From Candidatus Gracilibacteria bacterium (GTDB lineage: Bacteria > Patescibacteriota > Gracilibacteria > BD1-5 > UBA2023), in NCBI GenBank assembly GCA_028687475.1, contig JAQUAB010000002.1:62001-126000 (forward strand): a stretch of 64,000 bases of DNA, written 5' to 3'. The notes beneath the pieces are model-generated. The model made no database searches, was not told the DNA's origin, and saw only the letters and a list, made by a program, of their open reading frames with translations. This document shows, one piece after another, positions 31,319 to 50,091 of the stretch. The translations under genes and the position numbers were made by a program. The first letter of the stretch is position 1. Each line of letters opens with the position of its first letter.

Positions 31319-31358
31319 AAAAAATACTCCTTTCCGATACACTGAGGGAGTATTTTTT
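31319..31358 (+). terminator. Terminator of the two-component operon
   Basis: AAAATACTCC ... GGAGTATTTTTT stem with an 18-base loop. Confidence 0.7.
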
Positions 31359-31370
31359 AATTTCTCTCAT

Positions 31371-32480
31371 ATGGCTGATACTCAAGTCCAAACCCAGGAT
31401 CCAGAAATCAAGCTCCCTCAAGCATCTGCAGTCGTAAAACCTCTCTCTGCCACAGAACAAGCAGAAGTAGAGAAAACCTTTGCTGAAGCGACAGATTTTC
31501 GTTCTCTCGGAGAAAAAATCACTGCGCCTCTCGATTCTATCATCGCCGAAACGGCAACTGTTATCGATAGTGATCCTATCATGAATGTCTCTGATGAACT
31601 CTCGAAGATGAATACAGAAGTACAATCCGTCTACAAAGAGATCATCAACAATGATGGTACACTCATGCGTGTAGCGAAATCTGTTCCCCTTCTCGGTTCT
31701 CTCATGAAATCTCTCGATTCGAAGTGGGACGAAGCGAAGTTCAACATCCAGACACTTCAGGGAAAAATCGAGATGATTTTCTCAGGATTCGATCAGGCAT
31801 ACATCTCTCTCAACACAAGCGTCGACATGCAGAAAAAATTCCTCGAAGGTATCGATGAAAATCTCGGAAAAGTAATCGCCTATCGTGATTTTCTCTCAAG
31901 CAAGATCGAAGAATTCAAGACGAAATCCGCAGAAACAACGGATGAGAATACGAAAATGAAGCTCGATATGTTCATTCGCCAGGTAGAGTACTTCCAAAGT
32001 AATCTCAATGTCCTCATCGGAAATCTCGATATGGCTCGTAAGCGCCTCCTCATGCGTCTCGATGCCGCATCGAAGCTCTCGCTCTCTATGAGCTCTAGTC
32101 GTCCGATTTTTAAGACACTTCTCTCGACGGCTCTCATCGAGACCAGTTCACAGAAAGCCCTCGACGCCAGCATGAAAGCGATTGGTGTTATGGGTGAAAC
32201 TATCGACAAGATGTCAACTGAACTCACAGACAAAGCCATCGAATCATCTCGCAAGAGCGAAGAACTCGCATCGAAGCCAGTTCTCTCATCTCAAGTCTTC
32301 GTCGAAAATGTCACAAAACTCAAGACTCACTTCGAAACGATCGAAGCATACCGCGCCCAGGTAAAAATCGAAGCTGATGCAGAAAAGAAGGCTTTCGACG
32401 ATGCATCTGAACAGCTCAAACAAGTCAAAGTTCTCAATGCAAAAGATCAAGAAGAGCTCGCGAAAGAACTGAATCAGTAA
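31371..32480 (+). CDS. TelA/KlaA-like (toxic anion resistance) coiled-coil protein
   Basis: 369 aa, no membrane helix, almost entirely helical. The layout fits TelA: a short acidic N terminus, a PLLGSLMKSLD loop, long coiled coils (FDQAYISLNTSVDMQKKFLEGIDENLGKVIAYRDFL), then a ARKRLLMRLDAASKLSLSMSSSR region and a final regular helix. TelA proteins are linked with tellurite and colicin resistance and envelope stress; the molecular role is not settled. No internal TGA. Codon use is like that of housekeeping genes here (CTC, CGT, ATC), suggesting good expression. Ends in copy 1 of the hairpin repeat. Confidence 0.72.
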   Translation: MADTQVQTQDPEIKLPQASAVVKPLSATEQAEVEKTFAEATDFRSLGEKITAPLDSIIAETATVIDSDPIMNVSDELSKMNTEVQSVYKEIINNDGTLMRVAKSVPLLGSLMKSLDSKWDEAKFNIQTLQGKIEMIFSGFDQAYISLNTSVDMQKKFLEGIDENLGKVIAYRDFLSSKIEEFKTKSAETTDENTKMKLDMFIRQVEYFQSNLNVLIGNLDMARKRLLMRLDAASKLSLSMSSSRPIFKTLLSTALIETSSQKALDASMKAIGVMGETIDKMSTELTDKAIESSRKSEELASKPVLSSQVFVENVTKLKTHFETIEAYRAQVKIEADAEKKAFDDASEQLKQVKVLNAKDQEELAKELNQ

Positions 32481-32482
32481 TG

Positions 32483-32532
32483 TTGCAAAAATTGATAAGA
32501 AAAGCTGTGATAGAAATATCATGGTTTTTTAT
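32483..32532 (+). repeat. Promoter/terminator hairpin repeat, copy 1
   Basis: TTGCAA (32483-32488), 17 bp, TGTGAT, inside an inverted repeat AAAGCTGTGATA-GAAA-TATCATGGTTTTTT. Copies 2 and 3 are at 41593 and 43440. Here it most likely terminates the TelA-like gene, since no start codon follows. Confidence 0.65.
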
Positions 32533-32599
32533 TTTCAGTAAGGATTGAGGGAAATATCGGAAAGCTCGAAGGGATAATCAGGAAGATAGAGTAATTTCT

Positions 32600-41592: not shown

Positions 41593-41644
41593 TTGCAAAA
41601 ATTCACAAGAAAAGCTATGATAGAAATATCGTAGCTTTTTGTTT
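41593..41644 (+). repeat. Promoter/terminator hairpin repeat, copy 2
   Basis: TTGCAA (41593-41598), 17 bp, TATGAT (41616-41621). The -10 lies in the left arm of the hairpin AAAGCTATGATA-GAAA-TATCGTAGCTTT followed by T. The ATG of the next gene is at 41645. It can end the HD gene transcript and start the next one. Confidence 0.7.
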
Positions 41645-42655
41645 ATGGAAAGTATTTTCTTAATTCCTGAAGAAAGAGAATCTTTGAATCACAGAGGTTT
41701 TTTGATAAAATCTACAAATTCGATAAAGAGTATTTTCAAGATTTGGCTAAGAATATGATCGAATTTTGGTATAATGGTTATTTTTTCATGTCTTGCCTAC
41801 ATTGGTATTACAGGAATTATTTATTGATTACTTGGAATAAATGCATGAAACATTGAACTCTCTGTTTTAAAATATGGAGTTATTCCAGTCACGGGAATTA
41901 TATCCATATTTATGGTTGCAAGAAGTTGGTTTACAGTACTTTTCAATAAAAAGCGTTTCTTATACGAGGAAAGTAGCAATTATTACACAATATGAATGAA
42001 TGGAAAAACGGAAATCGCCACATATCCAGATATTATAAATACTAACTTTTCTCAAGCAGAATCATCTTCTATATTTATAATATATAGTATCTTCCCATTT
42101 GTTGTCTTTCCTCAAGAAAGCTGATTATTCCTTATATTCGTAGTCCTTCTGACATTCATTGTTCAGATCGTTATTCAATATTCACATCCCCTCTACGCCT
42201 TCTGAAACATCTGAGAAAAGATTCAGAAGCTCACTCCAGAAATAGAATCACAGAGTAAGTTGATTCAGTTGGAATTTCAGAAAGATCAGAATTTCTCAGT
42301 ATTGCATTCTGGATTCGAGAAGCTTTCTGAGACATTTTCTCGGATTGGAGAACTCGTATTGAAGCTCGAGGGAATTGAGAAGAAGGCAAATAAAGGAAAT
42401 CTTTTTGATTCTGAGAAGTATATTGGTTCTCTTCGTACAGATATTGTGACACCACTGGTGGAACTGAAGAAGTTTCTGGAATCGCAAAGAGAAGAGCTTC
42501 TCCAATCACAGAAAGAACTCTCGAAAGTCATAGTCGGAGAATCGAGTGAATTCAGTGGAAATAGAGACCTCGCGACAAAACGAGGAGAAGAGATATTGAG
42601 AGAATTGGATGGAAATATCTCCAAACTCGGAGAAATGATCGGGAAGATAGGGTAA
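41645..42655 (+). CDS. Modular membrane/coiled-coil protein, paralog A
   Basis: 336 aa. N-terminal half with four membrane helices (about 40-65, 73-92, 135-155, 158-178) in AT-rich codons and six or more TGA glycines. From about residue 183 (PLYAFGNIGEKIQKLTPEIE) a coiled-coil C-terminal half follows that is nearly the same as in paralog B at 43492, with segments DQNFSVLHSGFEKLS, NLFDSEKYI-SLRTDIVTPLVELKKFLE and ELL-QSQKEL-KVIVGESSE. The two N-terminal halves differ. No known family. Likely anchored with the coiled coil in the cytoplasm. Confidence 0.65.
42187..42652. repeat. C-terminal module repeat, copy in paralog A
   Basis: About 466 bp that closely match 44103-44568 base by base with scattered substitutions and no obvious indels; similarity fades just upstream, at the end of the last membrane helix. 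Confidence 0.75.
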
Positions 42656-42697
42656 GAAGATATTTTGTATTTTTCCAATTCCCTATATAATACCAAC

Positions 42698-43438
42698 ATG
42701 CAATTCCCTCCCATTACTGAACTTCTCGCGAAAATCGATGTCCTCATGGAAGATATCCATTCTATGAAGCCTCTTTCGACATGAGAACTCAGAGAGCTCC
42801 AGAAGAGTCTCCGTGTGATGGAAGTCTATAATTCGAATGCCATAGAAGGAAATACTCTCACACTCGGAGAAACGAAGCTCGTTATCGAGGATGGGATCAC
42901 TATCGGAGGGAAATCTATACGAGAAATGCATGAAGCAGAGAACCTCGCAAAAGCTATTGATGAGATAATCACTCACCATGGAAATATCACAGAAAAAACG
43001 ATTCTGACACTTCATGAACTTATCATGAAGAATATCGATGATGAGAATGCTGGGGTATATAGGAAAATCCAAGTATTCATATCATGAGACGAATCAAAAC
43101 CTCCAAAATCGGACGAAGTTCAGAGACTTATGGATGAACTTCTTGATTGGTACAATACTCACGGAGATATTCATCCTGCACTCCTTGCGAGTGAATTCCA
43201 CTACCGCTTCGTGAAGATTCATCCATTTGTCGATGGGAATGGTCGAACCGCACGACTTCTTGCGAACATGATTCTCATGAGTCGCGGATATCCGATGATA
43301 GTACTTCCCGTTGTTCGTCGTATGGACTATATCACTTCCCTTCATTCTCTCACAGGAAGCCTTGAGATATTCCAGAATTTCTATGCAGATATTGTGCATG
43401 AGAATCTCAGAGACTACATGCGGATGATACAATCCTAA
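42698..43438 (+). CDS. fic: Fic family protein
   Basis: 246 aa. Fic core motif HPFVDGNGRTARLL near residue 178 is complete, with the catalytic His and the nucleotide-binding Asn/Arg. N-terminal SNAIEGNTLTLGET holds an inhibitory (S/T)xxxE(G/N) helix motif, so it is a self-inhibited (class II-like) enzyme. It should transfer AMP or a related group to a protein hydroxyl; target unknown. Two TGA codons are Gly. It lies 42 bp behind paralog A and directly in front of hairpin copy 3 and paralog B, so it interrupts a duplicated pair. Confidence 0.93.
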
Positions 43439-43439
43439 T

Positions 43440-43491
43440 TTGCAAAAATTCACAAGAAAAGCTATGATAGAAATATTATAGCTTTTTGTTT
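43440..43491 (+). repeat. Promoter/terminator hairpin repeat, copy 3
   Basis: TTGCAA (43440-43445), 17 bp, TATGAT (43463-43468) and the hairpin AAAGCTATGATA-GAAA-TATTATAGCTTT. Nearly the same as copy 2 and again right before an ATG (43492). It starts 2 bp after the Fic stop codon. Confidence 0.7.
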
Positions 43492-44571
43492 ATGGAAAAT
43501 ACGGAACTGACATCTGAGGAGAGACAAGAATTGGAAAAAAGAGGATTCCTCACTAAAAAGAGAATGGATTTGATGTGCGTCTTTTCCAGTATAATAATAC
43601 TTACTGAATTTATATTTATAATATGTGCAGCTGGTATTTCTTTTTGATCATTTATTGCACCACTGCTATGGATCTGAAAAGAGGTGTCCTATACTAATCC
43701 CATGGTCAATATATTTCTATCAATCTTGTTTTGAATTATTCTAATATTTTTGACATACCAATTGTTTCCATCTATAAAAAGCGAATTCCAAAAAATAATA
43801 AACTCACTCCTCGTTGGAAGGCTATTTTATACTGCAGATGGATTAATTGCCTTTCATAATAAATATAAAATAAATAATCCATTGATTATGAAAAGAATAA
43901 AGAACACCTGTTCAAATAATGATGATATACGACGTAATGTGGTTACTATTTTAACATTCATCTTCATATTCTTCATTGCACTACTATCACTTTTTCTTTA
44001 TCTTAACTGAATATATAGTCAATATTATTTAGTTTTTCTAATAGTTTTAGTGGTACCCTACCTTCTCATTGCAATAGTATTAATTAGCTCATCATACTTC
44101 AATCCCCTCTACGCTTTCTGAAACATCTGAGAGAAAATCCAGAAATTCACTCCAGAAATAGAATCACAGAGTAAAATTATCCAATCAGAATTCGAGAAAG
44201 ATCAGAATTTCTCCGTTTTACATTCTGGATTCGAGAAGCTTTCTACGACATTTTCGGAGATTGGAGAACTCGTATTGAAGCTCGAAAGAGTCGAGAAGAA
44301 AGCAAATAAAGGAAATCTTTTCGATTCTGAGAAGTATATTAGTTCTCTTCGTACAGATATTGTGACACCACTGGTGGAACTGAAGAAGTTTCTCGAAGAA
44401 CAGAGAGAAGAGCTTCTCCAATCACAAAAAGAACTCACAAAAGTTATAGTCGGAGAATCAAGTGAACTTACAGGAAATAGAGAACTCGCTACCAGACGAG
44501 GAGAAGAGGTATTGAGAGAATTGGATGGAAATATTGAAAGATTGGATATAATGATCACCAAAATAGTATAA
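43492..44571 (+). CDS. Modular membrane/coiled-coil protein, paralog B
   Basis: 359 aa. N-terminal part with four membrane helices (about 27-58, 70-90, 155-180, 183-200) quite different in sequence from paralog A and very AT-rich (ATA, TTA, AAT codons), with five TGA glycines. From about residue 204 (NPLYAFGNIGEKIQKFTPEIE) the C-terminal module almost repeats that of paralog A and uses CTC, GAG and CGA codons. The switch in base composition at the junction suggests exchange of the front module. Function unknown. Confidence 0.65.
44103..44568. repeat. C-terminal module repeat, copy in paralog B
   Basis: Second copy of the 466-bp module at 42187-42652. Confidence 0.75.
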
Positions 44572-44575
44572 ATCT

Positions 44576-45100
44576 ATGATGACTCAATACTTCGCTTCTC
44601 TCTATGCACAACTTCTCCGCAGGAAACTCCAGAAGATGCGACTGCATTTTTCCCGAGAATTTGATACATTCCAGACGGTATTTCAGAGAGAATGATTTTC
44701 ACGAAATACCGAAAAACACCTTGATACTATTTCTATAATATTTTCCCAAATCTTCTCTAGAGCCCAAAAAATCGAGAAACTCGAAACGAAAATAGGAAAA
44801 GAAAGTGCTACCGAGGAGAATGATTATATTCTATCTTTATATCGTGATATTTTTTCACTTCTCACAACAATTCGCTGAGTTCTCACAGAGAGATATAATT
44901 CCCTTCGCAAAGGAGAGTATTCACTCAATGCTATCAAAAAATCAACTGTATCAGGAAAAGATCTCATCGATCTCGAACGAGTAATTAACTACACACTCGA
45001 AGAAAACATAAAACGTGCTCTCGATAAGACAGAGAAAAACATTTCTATCCTTCAGGAGGAATGTCAGAAATATGGGTTAGATTTTTTGGTGTCTCCGTAG
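44576..45100 (+). CDS. Hypothetical coiled-coil protein
   Basis: 174 aa, all helical, no membrane segment or signal peptide. Segments such as SLYRDIFSLLTTIRGVLTERYNSL and DLERVINYTLEENIKRALDKTEKNISILQEE are amphipathic. Two TGA codons are Gly. Starts 4 bp after paralog B, so it is in the same transcript and could bind its coiled-coil part. Start may be the first or second of two adjacent Met codons. Confidence 0.55.
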
Positions 45101-45167: not shown

Positions 45168-46373
45168 ATGTTGACACGAACCCAGGAACGAACAACACAG
45201 AAAAATACAGAAATCATAGAACAAAAAGTGAACGAACGTGGCTTTTATCTCTATGAATGGATTTCCCAGGAAGAACTCCGCATGACACTTGATAGTGATT
45301 ATCTCAAAACCGTCAGAGTTTCTAGCATTCCTCTGGCTATTATAGTGGCAATTGTGGGATTCATTGGATTTGCTGGTGGGATTCTCGGAACAATTCTCGC
45401 TGTTCTTGGAGTACTTGGGATTTTCTACCTGATTGTCTCTGTAATACTCTTTATTCGATTCATCGGAAAATCTTATCTCTATACTCGCGGTGCGAATGTC
45501 GTCATCACCGATAATCACTATATCCAATGAGGAAAAATCCTCGAAAAAAACGATATAGAAAATATTCGCAATAGCTTCACACGATACGAAGATACCTTCC
45601 ATGAGAAGTTTCTAGGAGAGTCTGGACTTGCAGAAAAGAAGGAGCTCGAGAAAAAGGCACTTTTCGATAATCTCAAAGAAGTTGCCATGGGTGGAGGAAA
45701 AATACTTGAAAATGTCGGACGTTCTCGTGATTCTGGTGGGATAGTTCTCGTGATTCTTGTTGCTGGATTCTTGTATAGTTTCATGATGGGTGCTGTCTAT
45801 TTTATCGGTATTTTCTTTATCGCGATATTTGGCAATATATTTTCTTGGCTTGCTAATAAGTATCTCCTGGCAACGAGCAATACGGAACATACGATTCAGA
45901 CGCTTTTCGGAGAAATCGATGAGAGTGCACAGAAAATCGAAATAGAAAAAGAAAATACCATCAATCTCCTCGATGAGGCTTCACAGAATGCATGGCAAGA
46001 AAATCTTCTCGGGAAGATAAATGAGTCTACGAAACTCCTCGGAGAAATCGCGGGCGATGCCACGAGCGATACTGTGAAACTTCGCAATATACTCGAACAA
46101 TCAAAATACAAGGATATTTTCAACTTCGTGAAATATGGAAACTGGGTAAAGAGACAAATCCTCGAACCAATCGAATCGATACTTTTGCTTCTTGAGACCA
46201 ATCATGCTACAATCGAGAAAACCATTATTTCTCTCGATGCTCAGATCTCTGAGACATCAGATCCATCACTCCAGAAACCACTCGAACTGCAAAAAGAAAG
46301 ACTTATACTCCAGAAAGAAAGTTTCGAACGAGTAATAGGAATGCTCGAGGGATATAAAGGGAAACTCATCTAA
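45168..46373 (+). CDS. Membrane protein with long C-terminal coiled coil
   Basis: 401 aa. Two membrane helices at about 54-100 with a Gly-rich turn (AIVGFIGFAGGILGTILAVLGVLGIF), a soluble loop containing a PH-like ANVVITDNHYIQGGKILEKNDIENI strand pair, a second helix pair (about 188-222), then a coiled coil to the end. The part KYKDIFNFVKYGNWVKRQILEPIESILLLLE is similar in pattern to the LFDSEKYI-SLRTDIVTPLVELKKFLE stretch of paralogs A and B, so it may be a distant member. One TGA is Gly. Confidence 0.6.
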
Positions 46374-46806: not shown

Positions 46807-48117
46807 ATGCCTTCAAAAGACACCGGTTTCGACGCTTTCTTCGAAGCAATCACTACTTCCCCAGAATTCAAATCCGCAGTCACAAAAGACTGGAAATGAG
46901 ATTCCATGGAAGCCCTTGAAGCCTCACTTCGTAGTATGCAATCATGAGTTGACAAGGCTGCTGATATGATGAAGGAATTTGAAGCAACATACAACACTCC
47001 AGAAGCGCAAGCCGCAGCGATGAATTCAGCACAAAATCCACCAAAAACTGGAAATCCGAAAGATGACGAACAAGTCTCAGCTATAGAGGTTCAGCACTTT
47101 GTGAAAAAAGAAGGAAAACCATGGGGATTCGAAGCAGTTGCTGGGATGGATAACCTAAAGGAAGAACTCAAGAATAGCTTCATCAAACCACTGAAATTCA
47201 AGTTTCTCATAGAGAAACTACGAAAAGAGGAGGATGCTCGTGATGTCATTCCTGCGAATGCAGGAATCCAGAAAACAGAAATACTAGATTCCGTGACAAG
47301 CACGGAATGACAGAAACAACAAGAACTCCTCCTCAAGCTCTACACCGAATATGAGAAATTCAAGATTTCCATCCCGACAGGAATGCTTTTTTATGGACCT
47401 CCAGGAACAGGAAAAACCTTCATCACCAAAAAACTCGCTGAAGAACTCGGATGCGGATTCGTCGCGAAAAATATGGGAGAATTCGGTTCATCATATCTCC
47501 ATCAGACAACCAAGAATATCAAAGATTTCTTCGCGGGAGCCAAGAAAGCGGCAGAAAATGAACCGATTATTCTTTTTCTTGACGAGATTGATTCGCTCGT
47601 ATCTGCACGTACCGACCGCGTCGATGCGAACAAAGCGGAAGAGATTTCACAATTTCTCCAGGAATTCAATGCACTCGAAACAGCACCGAATCTGATTGTA
47701 ATAGCCGCAACCAATCGTCCTGACCATCTCGATCCCGCAATTCTCCGATCTGGTCGCCTCGATAAAAAAATCTATATCGGACCTCCTGATGAAATCGCGA
47801 GAAAAGAGCTCTTCAAAATGTATATAGAGAGAATGGGTCGCCCGCATGAGAAGCTCGACTATGATGAGCTCGCAAAAATCTCTGATGGATACGTCTCAGC
47901 GGATATCGAAGCCATCTGTGACGAAGTTGCTCGTGATGCATCGAGAAATCTCCTCGATCTCGTCGATGAAGCAGAAAATGGAAAACTCACTAATGAGCTC
48001 CTCGAATGAAATAAAATCACCATGAATTCTCTCCGAAAAACACTTGCAGAAACTCCATCTTCACTCAAGATGGTGGATATGAGTGTGTATGAGAGTTGGC
48101 TCGAGAAAACAAGGTAA
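46807..48117 (+). CDS. AAA+ ATPase, Cdc48/FtsH-like single module
   Basis: 436 aa. A helical N-terminal region of about 110 residues (FDAFFEAITTSPEFKSAV, MQSGVDKAADMMKEFEATY) precedes WGFEAVAGMDNLKEELKNSFI, the usual entry to a classic AAA domain. Walker A FYGPPGTGKTFITK, Walker B IILFLDEIDSL, sensor 1 VIAATNRPDHLDPA, arginine fingers in LRSGRLDKKIYIGPPD and a C-terminal helical lid. No protease or second ATPase domain. It likely remodels or extracts a protein, maybe one of the membrane neighbours. Residues about 147-168 come from a palindromic repeat inserted in frame. Four TGA codons are Gly. Confidence 0.9.
47245..47311. mobile_element. REP/MITE-like palindromic element inside the AAA+ gene
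   Basis: 67 bp starting GTCATTCC and ending GGAATGAC, with two internal stems (ATTCCTGC/GCAGGAAT and ATTCCGTG/CACGGAAT). It is translated as VIPANAGIQ ... LDSVTSTEG without breaking the frame, in a loop before the Walker A motif. Its left half is like 4727-4750. No transposase is present. Confidence 0.75.
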
Positions 48118-48124
48118 ATAAAAT

Positions 48125-48811
48125 ATGCTACAAAATTATAACATTCAAAAACATATTCAAGATATCAAAAGTGATATTGCTGCACAAGTGAACATCGAGA
48201 TGCCACGATCTTTTATGGAATCATTTTTCATAGTAACCTTATCAGAAATAGTTCTTACTTTTGCTTATTATACTACCATATATGAAGACCCTTTCTCTAT
48301 CATGAGCCCCACAATGATAGTTATAATTATTACTGGAATCATGCTTTTGAATATCATGATGATAACATGTTATAGATTTCTCAAAGGGAAAATACTCTCT
48401 TTACCTGATAGACTCAATCGAGAAATAGAGAATGTTACAAAAGATCTTGAAGCCATATAGACAATAAATGAAATATTGATACGTAATTATGTCATATACG
48501 CTACTATTAAGAAAATTATACTCTATAAGAAGTTGCTAAAACTTGCTTCAAATACACATATTCAGAAATCTTTCATACATTTATCAACCGAAATCAATAA
48601 GCTCCAACTCTCATCGCTTATAAACCTCCGTTCCGACCTCCAGCTTCGCCTCGAAGAACAGCAGAAAACTCTCGAACAAGCCAAGTCTGAAGTCGAGCAA
48701 AATATTCACTGAACTATTGAACTCGAACAAATTTCTGAACTTCAACAGGCTCGGCTTGATAAGCAGATAGAACAGTTCGAGGAATTACAGAGAGTGCTCG
48801 TGAAGGTGTAA
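48125..48811 (+). pseudogene. Membrane/coiled-coil protein gene interrupted by TAG
   Basis: The first reading segment (48125-48460) encodes 111 aa with two membrane helices (FFIVTLSEIVLTFAYYTTIY, TMIVIIITGIMLLNIMMITCY) and ends in TAG. The same frame then continues, open, to TAA at 48811 (NEILIRNYVIYAT ... LRSDLQLRLEEQQKTLEQAK), giving the same layout as the intact gene at 49381, with which it shares a 179-bp identical 3' end. So one nonsense codon splits an otherwise complete 228-codon gene. Alternatives: TAG read-through, a sequencing error, or use of the 111-aa part alone. Confidence 0.6.
48626..48804. repeat. 179-bp direct repeat, copy 1
   Basis: Identical by eye to 49903-50081. It encodes the last part of the coiled-coil module (RSDLQLRLEEQQKTLEQ ... 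ELQRVLVK) and includes one TGA glycine codon. Confidence 0.85.
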
Positions 48812-48844
48812 TTGACTTTCTAAAAATAGAGATATAATTCCATC

Positions 48845-49039
48845 ATGACTAGCGTAATTATCGATAACATTCCTGAAACGAAGAAAGCAGAATATCAAGA
48901 TTTCTTTCGTACACTTGTACGTGAATACAATCTAGATGAACTCGAAGACCATCTGTTTGGTCTTCATATCGCGAAAAATGGAGAAACCTCTTATCCAATT
49001 TCTGAGCTCAAGGCAAAATATGAAAGTCAGATATCATAG
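48845..49039 (+). CDS. Small protein, likely antitoxin of a RelE/ParE-type pair
   Basis: 64 aa, acidic, MTSVIIDNIPETKKAEYQ then FRTLVREYNLDELEDHLFGLHI and a C-terminal ISELKAKYE motif. Size, acidity and position directly before a RelE-like reading frame fit a RelB/ParD-type antitoxin, although no DNA-binding motif is clear. No internal TGA. Ends with TAG; the toxin frame starts within the next few bases. Confidence 0.5.
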   Translation: MTSVIIDNIPETKKAEYQDFFRTLVREYNLDELEDHLFGLHIAKNGETSYPISELKAKYESQIS

Positions 49040-49043
49040 GTAA

Positions 49044-49289
49044 TTCGAGAAAGATATCAAAAAATATGCATCTCCTGAACAAATTCGGGAGATTTTTGAA
49101 TTTATCGACTTACTAGAGAAAACTAATTCACTCCAAGATATTGCAAATATCAAGAAACTTTCTGGGTTCAAGGAGTTTTATAGAATAAGGCTTGGAGAAT
49201 ATCGATTAGGCTTTCGTATAATCTGAGATACATATATTCAACTCGACAGATTCCTTCATCGGAAAGATATTTATCGGAAATACCCGTAA
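49044..49289 (+). pseudogene. RelE/ParE-like toxin reading frame lacking a start codon
   Basis: 81 codons from a TAA to a TAA: FEKDIKKYASPEQIREIFEF near the front, then IKKLSGFKEFYRIRLGEYRLGFRIIG and a final FLHRKDIYRKYP. The LxGxxxxYRIRxGxYRxxF pattern and the HRKDIYR end are those of RelE/ParE mRNA interferases and gyrase poisons. A stop codon stands just before the first helix and no ATG, GTG or TTG is in frame, so the usual first strand is missing. Likely a 5'-truncated or frameshifted toxin, or one started at an unusual codon. Confidence 0.65.
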
Positions 49290-49380
49290 TTCGGTTGGGG
49301 ATTTTGTATTTCTATGAAATTTCTGGTAGAATCATCATATAATCTCATCAGAGTTGGTTCGAGAAAGTAAAATAGGAAAT

Positions 49381-50091
49381 ATGCAAAATTCTACAAATAT
49401 CACAATGCCCCGATTTTTAAACCGATATAATCGATTTCTAAGTGAATTGGAAAAGAAATCTCACTATGATGCAAGTGTATATGCATCATTCATGAGTATT
49501 ATATGGTTTATAATATTACCATTTCTTATTATGTCGATTTGAACAAAAGTCGGAGGTAGTGGAGATGTTGGTGTAGAATATTTATTTATATTTTACCCAA
49601 TATTATGATTCTATTGAACAAAATTATTCTTTCGTATAACACGGTATCATTTTAGTCAATATTGAAAAATAAGATTGAAAGAAATATTCCGAAATATAAG
49701 GAGTCTATATACAATTATCAATTCAAAATTAGAGCTTATACAATCAATAGATGAAATTCTCGGTAAAATCGATGAAATAAATGAATTTCGCGGAGAATTG
49801 AGTAAGTTAGATGAAAAGATAAAACAACAGAAAACTCTTAATAAGAGATACTGAAGATTAATAAGAGATACAATAGAATGGATACTTCATGTCCTTTCTA
49901 ATCTCCGTTCCGACCTCCAGCTTCGCCTCGAAGAACAGCAGAAAACTCTCGAACAAGCCAAGTCTGAAGTCGAGCAAAATATTCACTGAACTATTGAACT
50001 CGAACAAATTTCTGAACTTCAACAGGCTCGGCTTGATAAGCAGATAGAACAGTTCGAGGAATTACAGAGAGTGCTCGTGAAAGTACAATAA
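49381..50091 (+). CDS. Modular membrane/coiled-coil protein, intact paralog of 48125
   Basis: 236 aa. Basic N terminus, two membrane helices (about 34-53 and 66-84), then coiled coil (SLYTIINSKLELIQSIDEILGKIDEI, SKLDEKIKQQKTLNKR) and the shared end module LRSDLQLRLEEQQKTLEQ. The front is AT-rich with ATA/TTA/AGA codons and five TGA glycines; the last 180 bp use CTC, CTT, GAA and CGT. The identical 3' module in the copy at 48125 with an unrelated front shows module exchange like that of paralogs A and B. Start ATG at 49381; a TTG at 49354 is possible. Confidence 0.6.
49903..50081. repeat. 179-bp direct repeat, copy 2
   Basis: Second copy of 48626-48804, in the same reading frame relative to its gene. 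Confidence 0.85.

What the first reader, a model, noticed from the sequence alone, without database searches (positions are those of the whole stretch)
41645..44571. Duplicated membrane proteins with swapped fronts around a Fic gene
Paralogs A and B share a roughly 466-bp 3' module nearly base for base but have unrelated, AT-rich, TGA-dense membrane fronts; a Fic gene with an inhibitory motif sits between them. The codon-use break falls at the module joint. This looks like front-module exchange on a constant cytoplasmic domain, as in systems that vary what is recognised at the surface. The Fic enzyme could modify or be controlled by these proteins.
Basis: partly seen in the sequence, partly recalled or inferred. 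Interest (0 to 1): 0.75.

Follow-up and report, generated by a model that had tools for sequence, protein, structure and literature searches.

The report
Tandem membrane paralogs with homogenised tails
Two neighbouring membrane-protein genes in a Gracilibacteria genome look like fast-diverged copies of one gene family whose 3' ends have been kept alike by recombination, so the "swapped fronts" are related, buried membrane segments and probably not interchangeable surface sensors.

Summary
A (41645-42655) and B (43492-44571), read with TGA=Gly, share a 468-nt 3' part (85.9% nt, 86% aa) and a near-identical 62-nt 5' flank. Their fronts are saturated at the DNA level. The fronts are not unrelated: they are homologous (31% aa, significant against local shuffles), share an N-terminal motif and a four-TM layout, and belong to the same family as neighbour D. 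Synonymous divergence is 0.79 in the front and 0.34 in the tail. It is also 0.70-0.84 between these tails and the tail in another genus. So one old duplication plus drift is excluded and the genes are mosaic. The simplest mechanism is gene conversion of the tail between tandem paralogs; front replacement is not excluded. A sharper second case lies 4 kb away (K1/K2: 185 nt at 98.9%, fronts unalignable). Lineage-limited copies occur in 4 more genomes of the family, beside a conserved TelA-like/D/AAA gene core. A scar of a third copy follows the TelA-like gene. Predicted external loops are tiny (1-28 aa), and the genome holds no donor copies, so surface-recognition switching is unsupported. Fic is an ordinary class II Fic with no such neighbours in the sampled relatives.

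The parts
41593..41644 (+). 5' flank copy P2 of A: TTGCAA-N17-TATGAT promoter-like element overlapping a 13-bp stem-loop
   Evidence: 95% identical to P3 over 62 nt; all stem pairs kept in 4 copies
41645..42187 (+). front of A: N-terminal ERxxLxxRGF motif, two TM hairpins, central cytoplasmic loop
42188..42655 (+). tail of A: conserved helical cytoplasmic domain
42698..43438 (+). class II Fic protein (inhibitory motif SNAIEGN, active site HPFVDGNGRTAR)
   Evidence: PF02661 E 9e-26; FICD-type relatives in PDB
43440..43491 (+). 5' flank copy P3 of B
43492..44103 (+). front of B, homologous to front of A and to fronts in relatives
44104..44571 (+). tail of B
44576..45100 (+). C: tail-only paralog without a front
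   Evidence: weak hit E 6e-6; hhalign probability 96% with the A family
45168..46373 (+). D: conserved four-TM plus helical-bundle paralog
   Evidence: hhalign full length, probability 97%; model pLDDT 82
46807..48117 (+). AAA ATPase of the conserved core
   Evidence: PF00004 E 1e-35; conserved neighbour of D
31320..32480 (+). T: TelA-like cytoplasmic protein of the conserved core
   Evidence: orthologs next to A/D in relatives; sub-threshold PF05816 in four orthologs
32483..32594 (+). scar of a third A/B copy: P1 (32483-32534) joined to the last ~50 nt of a tail (32541-32594)
   Evidence: E 1e-12 and 4e-5; 0 of 2000 shuffles reach the score
48125..48811 (+). K1: second-family membrane protein, in-frame TAG at 48458
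49381..50091 (+). K2: partner of K1, tail 98.9% identical over 185 nt, front unalignable

Best explanation
A and B are tandem, fast-evolving paralogs of the conserved membrane protein D, in a variable slot of a TelA-like (T)-D-AAA gene cluster of one Gracilibacteria family. Each copy carries its own promoter. The fronts have diverged to saturation; the tails were homogenised by intragenomic gene conversion (concerted evolution) plus purifying selection. Inferred function: four-TM inner-membrane subunits whose cytoplasmic helical-bundle tail docks on a shared partner (T, the AAA ATPase or other tails) in an envelope-maintenance or stress complex, while the buried front is free to change. Shown by computation: homology, mosaic divergence, cluster conservation, third-copy scar. 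Inferred: conversion as the mechanism, topology, docking, envelope role. Fic is a separate neighbour with an apparent promoter of its own.
For: Fronts homologous, controls near zero; A family, C and D homologous. Synonymous difference 0.79 front against 0.34 tail (p 1e-11), while the same tail sites are saturated against G023 (0.70-0.84), so they are not under DNA-level constraint. Within the tail the synonymous difference is uneven (0.60 in the first 40 codons, 0.19-0.24 in the next 80, p 0.002), which suits conversion tracts better than one clean cassette swap. G023 tandem pair: tails 0.46 over the shared 37 codons, against 0.72-0.79 across genera. K1/K2 shows the same pattern more recently (tail 0.07-0.08 within the genome, 0.61-0.91 across). 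T-P-A order in G021 and G013 and the scar after T in the window. TelA in Listeria contributes to tolerance of cell-wall-acting agents and is paired with a membrane protein XpaC (PMC12791056): a lead only.
Against: No strain-level data, so conversion was not seen in action. The front tree neither supports nor rejects A+B as sisters (AU p 0.40) and the tail tree supports them only at 80/72. The front alignment is weak. The other K pairs (G023, G005) show saturated or nearly saturated tails, so conversion is sporadic. T does not pass the TelA cut-off. The docking partner is a guess.
Confidence: 0.66

Rival explanations
1. Front exchange: homologous recombination between the shared 5' flank and the shared tail replaces whole fronts, between strains or loci, giving new membrane fronts on a constant tail.
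For: Shared sequence on both sides of the front; the front of A is no closer to that of B (SW 80) than to fronts of other genera (82-83); very sharp boundary in K1/K2.
Against: Fronts are homologous with one topology; no donor copies in the genome; synonymous divergence is uneven inside the tail; exposed loops are minimal.
Confidence: 0.2
2. Plain tandem duplication followed by fast drift of the fronts and purifying selection on the tail protein.
For: Tandem order; tail dN well below dS; fronts differ widely in all relatives.
Against: Synonymous sites differ by 0.79 in the front but 0.34 in the tail, and tail synonymous sites are free to vary across genera.
Confidence: 0.07
3. Insertion by single crossover: incoming DNA bearing a toxin-type gene and a new front recombined at the tail, leaving tail repeats around Fic (A/B) and around a ParE-like gene (K1/K2).
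For: Both tail-sharing pairs flank a toxin-type gene; an integration would give exactly this repeat layout.
Against: A/B also share the 5' flank; the G023 pair and K arrays have nothing comparable between copies; the two cases differ in age; n=2.
Confidence: 0.05
4. Assembly artefact joining tails of different genes.
For: Contigs of G021 and G023 end inside tails, showing that the repeats trouble assemblers.
Against: In the window A/B tails differ at 66 sites and lie inside a 144-kb contig of a genome in five contigs.
Confidence: 0.02

Closest known systems
Concerted evolution of tandem paralogs by ectopic gene conversion
   Same: One part of the gene alike within a genome and different between genomes, other parts diverged
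   Different: Here limited to a 3' cytoplasmic domain in an undescribed membrane family of a code-25 bacterium; no strain series yet
TelA/XpaC-type envelope-resistance operons (Listeria, Bacillus)
   Same: Cytoplasmic helical TelA-like protein beside TM-plus-helical membrane proteins
   Different: T is below the Pfam cut-off, D has no XpaC match; AAA ATPase and A/B/C/K paralogs added
Class II Fic proteins (FICD-like, inhibitory helix N-terminal)
   Same: Inhibitory motif SNAIEGN and HPFVDGNGRTAR active site; sequence relatives in PDB
   Different: Short stand-alone protein without TM or TPR region; target unknown
Cassette-exchange systems (shufflons, hsdS inversion)
   Same: Constant part joined to differing part
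   Different: No inverted repeats, recombinase or silent cassettes seen; fronts homologous

Membership tests
Concerted evolution by gene conversion | Part of the gene shows lower synonymous divergence than the rest of the same pair | tested here: met
   0.79 front, 0.34 tail, p 1e-11
Concerted evolution by gene conversion | Paralogs within a genome closer than to copies in other genomes in the converted part | tested here: met
   A/B 0.20 and the G023 pair 0.46 against 0.72-0.79 across genera over 37 codons; K1/K2 0.07 against 0.61-0.91
Concerted evolution by gene conversion | Conversion tracts segregating among strains | not testable with these tools
   one genome per species held
Cassette exchange for surface variation | Silent donor cassettes in the genome | tested here: not met
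   only two tails plus the diverged tail of C in the whole genome; donors lacking a tail are not excluded
Cassette exchange for surface variation | Variable part exposed outside the cell | tested here: inconclusive
   predicted external loops of 1-28 aa in A, B, D and four relatives; hydropathy only
Cassette exchange for surface variation | Exchanged segments unrelated | tested here: not met
   A/B front z 4.5 against locally shuffled sequence, controls near 0
TelA family (PF05816) | Match over the Pfam cut-off | tested here: inconclusive
   no match in the window genome; E 3e-4 to 5e-3, below the cut-off, in four T orthologs
Class II Fic | (S/T)xxxE(G/N) before the Fic core and HPFx(D/E)GNGRxxR | tested here: met
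   SNAIEGN and HPFVDGNGRTAR in 42698-43438
Class II Fic | AMP transfer activity | not testable with these tools
   needs assay

The most novel reading that the evidence does not exclude
Recombination between conserved tails repeatedly builds new front-tail combinations in two membrane families of one gene cluster, and a toxin-type gene held between the repeats (Fic; ParE-like) stabilises the pairs against loss: an addiction-stabilised module-shuffling array.
Probability: 0.06. Interest if true: 0.75.

Novelty: new member of a known kind. Interest (0 to 1): 0.36.

Why it matters
It shows a reduced, code-25 CPR genome keeping a recombining array of membrane paralogs next to a conserved TelA-like/AAA core that turns up across Gracilibacteria without a described role. 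That core, rather than the front swap, is the part most worth a biochemical look. The case also shows how conversion of one domain can mimic module exchange.

Tried and rejected
Unrelated fronts: rejected. More tail copies as donors: none. Phage origin: no relative in viral contigs by this search. AlphaFold model of A: pLDDT 53, not used for fold search. PDB hits of the A family are influenza HA2 coiled coils at E 0.01 or more, taken as chance. Foldseek of D: nothing at E<0.001; the second look gives syntaxin-like helical bundles at Z 15.6, just above the range the tool warns is common for helical bundles, so no function was read from it. Tree of fronts: unresolved. PADLOC: only general Fic/AAA-type matches and one weak LeoB-like coiled-coil hit (E 0.004) for A. 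Rfam: only a tRNA. Promoter and terminator scans: no excess over shuffles, so the promoter reading of P rests on its TTGCAA-N17-TATNAT form in G013, where hairpin and promoter are separate.

Full report
What is there. The window is part of a 1.06-Mb genome that reads open with TGA=Gly; two relatives that hold the same genes carry the title Candidatus Gracilibacteria, a group known for this code (PMC4032931). With that code A (41645-42655, 336 aa), Fic (42698-43438), B (43492-44571, 359 aa), C (44576-45100) and D (45168-46373) are consecutive genes on the + strand. A and B share 468 nt at their 3' ends, 85.9% identical, and 62 nt around their starts, 95% identical. In the whole window only three groups of direct repeats reach E<1e-8: this tail, a tail shared by K1 and K2 four kb downstream, and the 5' flank.

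The fronts are related. In alignments with homologs from four other genomes (G023, G021, G013, G014) the fronts keep a similar N-terminal stretch ending in GF (ExxxLxxRGF in most), two TM hairpins, a basic central loop and the joint motif PLYAFGN. Smith-Waterman scores of A against B, G023 and G021, and of B against all, stand about 4 to 14 standard deviations above shuffles, while unrelated membrane proteins of the window give about zero. A is not significantly similar to G013 or G014 one-to-one. Profile comparison places the A family and D as homologs over nearly their full length, and C as a tail without a front.

The genes are nonetheless mosaic. Synonymous differences are 0.79 per site in the front and 0.34 in the tail (p 1e-11). 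The tail's synonymous sites are not held by DNA-level constraint, because the same tails differ at 0.70-0.84 of them from G023. One duplication followed by drift cannot give this. Within the tail the difference runs 0.60, 0.19, 0.24, 0.39 in successive quarters; the first 40 codons against the next 80 give p 0.002 (the split was chosen after seeing the profile, so the p-value flatters). A front cassette swapped in one step would leave the tail uniform; conversion tracts would not. The tandem pair of G023 has tails closer to each other (0.46 over 37 codons) than to other genera (0.72-0.79). K1/K2, a second membrane family, has tails with three synonymous changes in 186 nt and fronts at chance level, while its tails are 0.61-0.91 from other genomes. 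In G023 and G005 the K tails are mostly saturated between copies, so events are sporadic. I favour gene conversion of tails; the data do not exclude replacement of fronts, since both leave the same joint, and the front tree is unresolved.

History and setting. Across the order a core of T (cytoplasmic, TelA-like), D and an AAA ATPase stays together in many genomes, and the A family appears only in five genomes of the window's family. In G021 and G013 the A-family gene follows T directly. In the window T is followed by a copy of the 5' flank joined to the last 50 nt of a tail: the scar of a third copy. The flank holds TTGCAA-N17-TATGAT overlapping a 13-bp stem whose five substitutions all keep pairing (only four sequences, all one-sided changes). 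In G013 a hairpin after T and a hairpin-free TTGCAA-N17-TATTAT before A are separate, so I read the flank as the terminator of T fused to the promoter of A. That is inference.

How it may work. The hydropathy and charge pattern puts N terminus, central loop and tail inside, with external loops of 1-28 aa. The D model, good at pLDDT 82, gives an up-down helical bundle for the tail. The simplest working model is an inner-membrane subunit whose tail docks on a shared partner, which would explain why tails are constrained and fronts are not. T orthologs give sub-threshold TelA matches, and TelA with XpaC is linked to tolerance of cell-wall-acting agents in Listeria (PMC12791056). An envelope role is thus a lead, not a result.

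Fic. It is a class II Fic by motif, closest in the PDB to FICD-type enzymes. It has a possible TATAAT promoter in the gap after A (by eye), occurs in 28 of 118 sampled genomes, and in the 11 relative loci checked, which extend only about 1.5 kb on either side, has no A-, C-, D- or K-type neighbour. I see no evidence that it acts on A or B. Both tail-sharing pairs flank a toxin-type gene (Fic, and a ParE-like remnant); with two cases this may be chance.

Noticed in passing
48125-50091: K1 and K2: second pair with a 185-nt tail at 98.9% identity and unalignable fronts; K1 front has an in-frame TAG.
   Followed up: yes
48845-49290: Between K1 and K2: a 64-aa ORF and a ParE/RelE-like (PF05016, E 1e-5) reading frame without a clear start codon.
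   Followed up: partly
32483-32594: Scar of a third A/B copy after the TelA-like gene T.
   Followed up: yes
L027:5839-6691: A-family homolog of G021 has an in-frame TAA in its front; contigs of G021 and G023 end inside tails, as if repeats broke the assembly.
   Followed up: partly
L058:5000-7700: G023 carries three K genes in a row with conserved tails and different fronts.
   Followed up: partly
44576-45100: C is a tail-only relative of A/B; its counterpart sits at the same place in G013 (L031:9275-9841).
   Followed up: yes
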